Source of the DNA: Thermoplasmata archaeon
Lineage (GTDB): Archaea; Thermoplasmatota; Thermoplasmata; Thermoplasmatales; Thermoplasmataceae
DNA: 63,048 nucleotides
Direction of reading: 5' to 3'
Assembly: GCA_021817255.1 (NCBI GenBank)
Contig: JAKAVO010000007.1
Coordinates: 1 to 63,048 of the forward strand
Shown here: positions 20,487-56,889 of the stretch, piece after piece
Layout of the letters: every line of letters begins with the position of its first letter
Position numbering within the stretch: the stretch's first letter is position 1
Program-made: the position numbers and the translations under genes
The notes under the pieces: generated by a model
The model's input: the letters and a program-made list of their open reading frames with translations, nothing else
What the model was told of the DNA's origin: nothing
Database searches by the model: none

Positions 20487-20497
20487 TTTAAATACTT
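20487..20497 (+). promoter_or_regulatory. TATA-like box before the structured leader
   Basis: TTTAAATACTT is a good archaeal TATA match. Transcription would begin about 25 bases downstream near 20515-20522, leaving some 225 bases before the protease ATG. Confidence 0.45.
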
Positions 20498-20565
20498 ATC
20501 AACAAACCTTAATTAAAATGTATTGATATCTGACACGCCCTGAAATTAGTATAGATGATCTCATG

Positions 20566-20740
20566 ATTTTATATGGCGACACAGGGTATAAAAATCGCCT
20601 CGCCATATGGGCCTCTGCACCAGTATAGGATCTAATTCCTGCTATGAAATGCCGATCAGAGGCTGGCGAAAAAGTCCCCGTGGGTCAGAGGAACCAGGAA
20701 AATGAATGGTTCCCGTTAGAACGGGGAAAAGATCAAGAGG
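20566..20740 (+). ncRNA. Candidate structured leader RNA or ncRNA upstream of the site-2 protease gene
   Basis: Several perfect stems follow each other: ATATGGCGA (20571-20579) with TCGCCATAT (20600-20608); GCCTCTG (20611-20617) with CAGAGGC (20657-20663); CCCCGT (20676-20681) with ACGGGG (20721-20726), the last pair enclosing GGAACCA (20690-20696) with TGGTTCC (20707-20713). I looked for RNase P, SRP and known riboswitch signatures and saw none. It could be a cis-acting leader of the membrane protease gene or an independent small RNA. Folding is read by eye; no energy calculation was made. Confidence 0.45.
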
Positions 20741-20746
20741 CTATCC

Positions 20747-56748: not shown

Positions 56749-56889
56749 TGGGGACACTGGGATTTGAACCCAGATCTGCGGGTCTCTTCCCGGTTCATAG
56801 TTCCAGTCAATCATCACCATTTCAGTTGACCCGTTTCTAATCAAAACCTGACTGGAGCCCAATAGGATGCCTGATTACCCCATGTCCCC
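56749..56889 (-). tRNA. tRNA-Trp (anticodon CCA) with intron
   Basis: Acceptor GGGGACA pairs with TGTCCCC plus A; the T-arm is CTGGGTTCAAATCCCAG. The 5' anticodon stem TTGGG leads into CTCCAG, with anticodon CCA. An intron of about 68 bases (roughly 56784-56851) interrupts at position 37/38, the canonical archaeal site; the 3' exon resumes near ACCCG. In the intron, TGACTGG is complementary to the anticodon region CCAGTCA, and the C/D-type elements CTGA and GTGATGA are present, as in other euryarchaeal tRNA-Trp introns that guide methylation. The exact splice points are uncertain by a few bases; pair 27-43 is a mismatch. Confidence 0.88.

What the first reader, a model, noticed from the sequence alone, without database searches (positions are those of the whole stretch)
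20515..20746. Highly structured ~225-base leader or small RNA before the site-2 protease gene
Four stems of 6-9 bp, two of them nested, fill the region between a good TATA box (20487-20497) and the ATG. Many genes here look leaderless, so a long folded leader is out of character. It matches no RNA family I could recognise.
Basis: partly seen in the sequence, partly recalled or inferred. Interest (0 to 1): 0.5.

Follow-up and report, generated by a model that had tools for sequence, protein, structure and literature searches.

The report
Three-hairpin archaeal pseudouridine guide RNA
The folded stretch before the protease gene is most likely an archaeal guide RNA that directs pseudouridine formation in the ribosome's working core; it belongs to a known family (HgcG/Pab40) but has diverged too far here for the standard library to recognise, and in this group of archaea it usually sits at the front of a membrane-protease gene.

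Summary
The structure is real: fold z -3.4 and strong covariation over 88 homologues (93.2% of cells paired; score 0.647 against 0.213 shuffled). It is not a protease-specific leader but a three-hairpin box H/ACA guide sRNA, about 20533-20731. Each hairpin has a guide pocket, a kink-loop or kink-turn, and an ANA box about 14-15 nt behind the upper stem. Six of 37 homologous loci scanned match Rfam HgcG (Pab40, RF00064), best E 1.3e-11, all below its gathering score; the window copy does not match. Hairpin 3 fits 23S helix 69 (U1915, E. coli numbering); hairpin 2 fits the A-loop (U2554/2555, imperfect geometry); hairpin 1 fits U2511 (weak 5' guide here). The RNA is in 69 of 77 genomes of the family: just upstream of the site-2 protease in 56, elsewhere in 13, and not beside it in the other families of the order. 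In linked genomes it probably also forms the protease mRNA's 5' leader (inferred). Verdict: divergent, unrecognised members of a known kind; the coupling to the protease is the unusual part.

The parts
20508..20517 (+). TATA-like promoter element (CTTAATTAAA)
   Evidence: position; A/T-rich element at a similar distance before the RNA by eye in the 40 loci printed; simple pattern met in 38 of 56 linked, 10 of 13 unlinked f1 and 8 of 13 f3 members
20533..20731 (+). H/ACA guide sRNA (ends approximate; model match 20527-20731)
   Evidence: covariance model match, covariation; ends inferred from the TATA-like element and the last ANA box
20537..20587 (+). hairpin 1, with K-loop GA...UGA; upper stem and loop 20549-20574
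20575..20580 (+). hairpin 1 3' guide (GGCGAC; GACGAC in 64 of 69 f1 members), pairs 23S GUCGUC before U2511
20595..20669 (+). hairpin 2, with K-turn
20605..20612 (+). hairpin 2 5' guide (...UGGGC), pairs A-loop GCCCA; 3' guide CAG at 20657-20659 pairs CUG
20675..20727 (+). hairpin 3, with K-loop, followed by ANA box
20682..20687 (+). hairpin 3 5' guide GGGUCA, pairs UGACCC of 23S helix 69
20715..20718 (+). hairpin 3 3' guide GUUA, pairs UAAC before U1915
20735..20740 (+). possible Shine-Dalgarno (AAGAGG) of the protease gene
   Evidence: ORF; homologues in 112 of 117 genomes of the order at E<=1e-20

Best explanation
It is a three-hairpin archaeal box H/ACA guide sRNA, the Thermoplasmatales counterpart of HgcG/Pab40 (Pf7, Afu-4). 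Transcription starts just before hairpin 1. Each hairpin would bind L7Ae at its K-loop or K-turn and Cbf5-Nop10(-Gar1) at its stems and ANA box. The two strands of each pocket pair with 23S rRNA on either side of a uridine, which Cbf5 turns into pseudouridine: U1915 in helix 69 (hairpin 3, best supported), U2554 or U2555 in the A-loop (hairpin 2, probable), U2511 near the peptidyl-transferase centre (hairpin 1, possible). In this genome and most of its family the same promoter probably also serves the site-2 protease gene behind it, so the sRNA is either cut out of, or kept as, the protease mRNA's 5' leader. Shown by computation: structure, covariation, homology of relatives to HgcG, guide-target complementarity, gene order. 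Inferred: RNP assembly, modification, transcript ends, co-transcription.
For: Covariation: on the MAFFT alignment A2 (16 sequences) 90.6% of cells pair, 24 of 44 pairs have double changes (shuffled mean 13.6), score 0.379 against 0.172, 0 of 500 shuffles; on A3 (88 rows, 87 distinct, fitted to the model) 93.2% pair, score 0.647 against 0.213 shuffled (0 of 500) and at most 0.142 when slid. Rfam RF00064 HgcG (Pab40), model 1-276, at the RNA itself: L164 1.3e-11, L175 4.6e-9, L178 1.9e-5, L122 3e-6, L123 3.6e-6, L177 3.2e-4: 6 of 37 distinct loci scanned. ANA at 13-15 nt behind the upper stem: f1 65, 63 and 68 of 69 for hairpins 1, 2, 3 (control windows 22/9, 12/18, 4/0); f3 14 of 14 for each, at exactly 14, 14 and 15 nt (controls 0/0, 6/0, 0/0). 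GA-N2-6-UGA in hairpins 1 and 3: 69 of 69 each in f1. Guide strands in place: GGGUCA, GUUA, UGGGC and CAG 69 of 69 each in f1. UAACUAUGACCC of helix 69 in 18 of 18 LSU genes read; with one free base it occurred 0 times in 3000 shuffles of G010 SSU+LSU. Cbf5 8 of 8, Nop10 8 of 8 genomes. Published third hairpins of Pf7/Pab40/Afu-4 aim at the same U (PMC2584109 section 24, PMC4652768 section 14).
Against: The window copy does not match HgcG, nor do 22 of 24 f1 loci, 8 of 9 f3 loci and 1 of 2 f4 loci scanned, so membership runs through a few relatives below the gathering score. On A3 the number of pairs with double changes (39) hardly exceeds shuffles (36.4; 10 of 500 as high). Hairpin 2 needs three unpaired target bases; PMC4652768 calls a third unpaired residue unfavourable (passage). 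Hairpin 1's 5' guide is poor in f1, its 3' guide alone is expected 0.23 times by chance, and it is absent in G014 and in 4 of 4 f4/f5 members. 12 of 14 f3 members have GGUCA but not GGGUCA. By hand count hairpin 3's upper stem is one pair longer than the usual ten. The targets do not vary, so no guide-target covariation can be shown. Gar1 was found in 4 of 8 genomes, over its cut-off in 1, and not in this genus; L7Ae was not tested. No expression or modification data; this genome's LSU is incomplete.
Confidence: 0.9

Rival explanations
1. A cis-regulatory leader (riboswitch-like or protein-binding) whose main job is to control the site-2 protease gene.
For: RNA directly upstream of the protease in 56 of 69 family genomes that carry it, start codon with open frame 3-62 nt behind it, T run behind the RNA in only 4 of 56 linked members.
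Against: In 13 of 69 family genomes the RNA is elsewhere (same contig 281-433 kb away in three complete genomes); in f3-f5, of 19 genomes with the RNA 17 have the protease homologue on another contig and 2 had no protease match; the nearest downstream ORF is on the opposite strand in 11 of 13 unlinked f1 loci. The conserved internal loops are explained by rRNA complementarity.
Confidence: 0.04
2. Both at once: a guide sRNA whose assembly or excision on the nascent transcript also sets protease expression.
For: Gene order and the missing terminator-like T run in linked members; kink-loop of hairpin 3 lies close to the protease start.
Against: No data on transcripts; the protease keeps its own short leader and works without the RNA in unlinked genomes.
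Confidence: 0.2
3. Another structured RNA of unknown function that only resembles H/ACA RNA.
For: Hairpins 1 and 2 have imperfect guide-target geometry; the window copy does not match Rfam.
Against: HgcG matches in relatives, ANA spacing, exact helix 69 complementarity.
Confidence: 0.04

Closest known systems
HgcG RNA / Pab40 (Rfam RF00064; Pf7 in P. furiosus, Afu-4 in A. fulgidus)
   Same: Three H/ACA hairpins in a row; L164 aligns over the full HgcG model; the third hairpin pairs with helix 69 around U1915, as reported for Pf7 stem III, Pab40.3 and Af4.3 (PMC2584109 section 24, PMC4652768 section 14).
   Different: The window copy is not recognised by the Rfam model; predicted targets of hairpins 1 and 2 (2511, 2554/2555) were not shown to equal those of Pab40 (L2588, L1932); usually joined to a site-2 protease gene in this family.
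Haloferax volcanii H/ACA motifs Hvo1/Hvo2
   Same: Hvo2 is described as the homologue of Pf7 stem III, aimed at 1915 and 1917, and it also needs an extended upper stem and a third unpaired base (PMC2584109 section 24, PMC4652768 section 14).
   Different: Two hairpins separated by a long spacer in halobacteria; here three adjacent hairpins.
Nanoarchaeum equitans H/ACA sRNA
   Same: Several hairpins with k-turns, an ACA between them, own promoter and T stretch (PMC3491384, passages).
   Different: Two hairpins, intergenic, another lineage.

Membership tests
archaeal box H/ACA guide sRNA | one to three hairpins, each with two stems around an internal pocket | tested here: met
   three hairpins; every one of seven helices has pairs with double changes
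archaeal box H/ACA guide sRNA | K-turn or K-loop (GA/GA) at the top of the upper stem | tested here: met
   GA-N2-6-UGA in hairpins 1 and 3, 69 of 69 each in f1, 13 and 14 of 14 in f3; hairpin 2 tested only for UGA, 68 of 69 and 14 of 14
archaeal box H/ACA guide sRNA | ANA box 14-15 nt 3' of the upper stem | tested here: met
   f3 14 of 14 for each hairpin; f1 65, 63, 68 of 69 at 13-15 nt, in f1 mostly inside A runs; f4/f5 2, 4, 4 of 4
archaeal box H/ACA guide sRNA | pocket strands complementary to rRNA on both sides of UN | tested here: met
   met for hairpin 3 (6 + 4 pairs); hairpin 2 only with a 3-base spacer; hairpin 1 with both guides only in f3
archaeal box H/ACA guide sRNA | Cbf5, Nop10, Gar1, L7Ae present | tested here: inconclusive
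   Cbf5 8 of 8, Nop10 8 of 8, Gar1 4 of 8, L7Ae not tested
archaeal box H/ACA guide sRNA | pseudouridine at the target in vivo | not testable with these tools
   no modification data held
HgcG / Pab40 (RF00064) | match to the Rfam covariance model | tested here: inconclusive
   window: none; 6 of 37 distinct homologous loci match at E 1.3e-11 to 3.2e-4, all below the 77-bit gathering score (E limit 1, 10 and 1)
HgcG / Pab40 (RF00064) | third hairpin targets the 23S U1915 equivalent | tested here: met
   numbering, sequences; published target from PMC2584109 and PMC4652768
protease-specific cis-regulatory leader | constant association with the regulated gene | tested here: not met
   13 of 69 family members unlinked; f3-f5 members not beside it

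The most novel reading that the evidence does not exclude
In most genomes of this archaeal family an rRNA-modification guide RNA is physically the 5' leader of a membrane-protease mRNA, so that guide-RNP assembly or excision on the transcript sets protease synthesis and ties intramembrane proteolysis to ribosome production.
Probability: 0.2. Interest if true: 0.6.

Novelty: new member of a known kind. Interest (0 to 1): 0.38.

Why it matters
It also offers a natural case of a guide sRNA that is placed before an mRNA in some lineages and stands free in others, so the effect of the coupling can be compared.

Tried and rejected
Rejected: a protease-specific leader (unlinked in 13 of 69 and not beside the protease in f3-f5); RNase P and SRP RNA (RNase P RNA is elsewhere in this genome; SRP RNA was found in 21 of 25 genomes at other places, though not in this incomplete one); chance folding.

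The other figures per SSU+LSU: hairpin 3 core 0.018, hairpin 1 GUCGUCU 0.231, hairpin 1 with the f3 5' guide 0.001, hairpin 2 CUGUNNGCCCA 0.012 and CUGNNNGCCCA 0.058. Guide-target covariation was looked for and could not be shown because the rRNA does not vary. A script test for K-loops in f3 hairpin 1 failed through a badly made pattern (0 of 14) and was redone (13 of 14). A simple TATA pattern caught only 38 of 56 linked members. G052 (E 0.0078) has none of the guides and is probably false, but was kept among the 88 rows; the second hit in G006 (E 0.0033) was not followed. Start codons are the first with an open frame, not proven protease starts. The literature on sRNA genes co-transcribed with mRNAs was searched once without result. 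Whether HgcG hairpins 1 and 2 have the same targets was not settled, for want of a Pyrococcus 23S sequence.

Full report
The observation. The stretch 20511-20746 folds to -72.8 kcal/mol, z -3.38, with none of 200 shuffles as low; the opposite strand scores z -3.08, so folding alone says little about strand. Rfam finds no family there at gathering scores or, apart from two unrelated minus-strand matches, at E up to 10.

Conservation. A DNA search of 41 genomes (this one included) gave strong matches in the same family; the first 15 loci, L001-L015, all have the protease next to the match, while the sixteenth, L016 in G020, does not. An alignment of 16 (A2) supports a named three-hairpin structure: 90.6% of cells paired, 24 of 44 pairs with changes on both sides, 0 of 500 shuffles reaching the covariation score. 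A covariance model from it found the RNA in 88 of 117 genomes of the order at E<=0.1: 69 of 77 in the window's family f1, 14 of 15 in f3, 2 of 5 in f4, 3 of 18 in f5 (one of these, G052, probably false), none in the single genomes of f2 and f6. The 8 f1 genomes without a match have completeness values of 62-87%. At phylum level 29 of 194 genomes matched at E<=0.01, nine of them outside the order. On all 88 rows 93.2% of cells pair and the covariation score is 0.647 against 0.213 shuffled; 39 of 43 pairs show double changes, but shuffles give 36.4 on that measure. This alignment was fitted to the model.

What it is. Three hairpins follow one another. Each has a lower stem, an internal pocket, an upper stem ending in GA...UGA (K-loop in hairpins 1 and 3; in hairpin 2 a K-turn with a further stem, read by eye), and an ANA triplet about 14-15 nt behind the upper stem. 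Over 69 f1 members ANA occurs at 13-15 nt in 65, 63 and 68; in f3 in 14 of 14 for each hairpin, mostly as ACA or ATA, at exactly 14 nt (hairpins 1 and 2) or 15 nt (hairpin 3); in four f4/f5 members in 2, 4 and 4 (with control windows). These are published marks of archaeal H/ACA sRNAs (PMC2584109 passages; PMC4652768 section 10). Independently, Rfam's HgcG model (Pab40, H/ACA) hits the same RNA over its full length in relatives: L164 1.3e-11, L175 4.6e-9, L178 1.9e-5 (3 of 7 sources), L122 and L123 about 3e-6 (2 of 20), L177 3.2e-4 (1 of 11); 6 of 37 distinct loci, all below the gathering score. L122 and L123 belong to the window's own family.

Targets. Hairpin 3 has 5' guide GGGUCA and 3' guide GUUA, both in place in 69 of 69 f1 members. 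They pair with UGACCC and UAAC on either side of U-A in helix 69. UAACUAUGACCC is in 18 of 18 LSU genes read (7 of 17 genomes asked had no LSU match) and its U aligns with E. coli U1915. With one free base the string occurred 0 times in 3000 shuffles of the G010 SSU and LSU. The third hairpins of Pf7, Pab40 and Afu-4 are reported to guide the same position (PMC2584109 section 24, PMC4652768 section 14). In 12 of 14 f3 members the 5' guide is one base short, GGUCA. Hairpin 2 has UGGGC and CAG, both in place in 69 of 69 f1 and 14 of 14 f3 members, matching GCCCA and CUG around UUC of the A-loop in 8 of 8 LSU genes and 15 of 18; the base modified would be U2554 or U2555. Three bases, not two, would be unpaired, a feature described as unfavourable. 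Hairpin 1 has GACGAC in 64 of 69 f1 and 14 of 14 f3 members (GGCGAC in the window, which still pairs with one G-U), matching GUCGUC before U2511; f3 adds a 5' guide UGGAA fitting UUCC, f1 does not; f4/f5 lack it (0 of 4). I rank hairpin 3 high, hairpin 2 moderate, hairpin 1 low to moderate.

Protein partners. Cbf5 (TIGR00425) and Nop10 (PF04135) are in 8 of 8 genomes tested, this one included. Gar1 (PF04410) was found in 4 of 8, over its cut-off in 1, and not in this genus. L7Ae was not tested.

Gene order and expression. Comparing the positions, the RNA lies just before the protease in 56 of 69 f1 genomes. A start codon with an open frame lies 3-62 nt behind it in 56 of 56, with a Shine-Dalgarno match of 4 nt or more in 46 of 56 against 24.8 by shuffling. 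In 13 (10 of genus g10, 3 of g25) it lies elsewhere, in three complete genomes 281-433 kb away. Of 19 f3-f5 genomes with the RNA, 17 have the protease homologue on another contig and 2 had no protease match. In 24 unlinked loci examined (of 32), the nearest downstream ORF of 70 aa or more is on the opposite strand in 11 of 13 f1 and 10 of 11 others. TTTT from 4 nt before to 30 nt behind the RNA end is seen in 12 of 13 unlinked f1 members, 8 of 13 f3 members and 4 of 56 linked ones. A TATA-like element sits about 20 nt before the RNA in both settings. In the 10 unlinked genomes whose protease locus was held, 7 show a Shine-Dalgarno match of 4 nt or more before the protease. I infer one promoter for RNA and protease in linked genomes, with the sRNA either excised or retained.

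Novelty. The kind is known (HgcG/Pab40). I saw no report of this RNA in Thermoplasmatales in the searches; these lists were capped for three of the four and cover an open-access library only. Papers: PMC2584109 passages and section 24; PMC4652768 outline, sections 9, 10, 14 and passages; PMC6138745, PMC3608112, PMC7991803 and PMC3491384 passages only; Muller 2008 not seen.

Noticed in passing
window 56749-56889 (-): Rfam calls a tRNA spanning 141 nt (41.4 bits) that ARAGORN does not report; probably a tRNA with an intron.
   Followed up: no
genomes G000, G010, G002, G020: Gar1 (PF04410) not detected although Cbf5 and Nop10 are; diverged or missing Gar1 in this group.
   Followed up: no
L187, L188 (f5 LSU genes): The strings TCGATGTCG and CTGTTCGCC, found in the other LSU genes read except a partial one, were not found in the two f5 LSU genes; a variant or interrupted peptidyl-transferase region.
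   Followed up: no
L167 2353-2420 (-), L174 1786-1853 (+): Weak matches to C/D sRNA sR17 close to the H/ACA RNA in f3 genomes, below the gathering score.
   Followed up: no
G072:C1:695420-696067 and 1934701-1935210: The protease appears in two pieces far apart in this one-contig genome; one piece lies at the end of the record.
   Followed up: no
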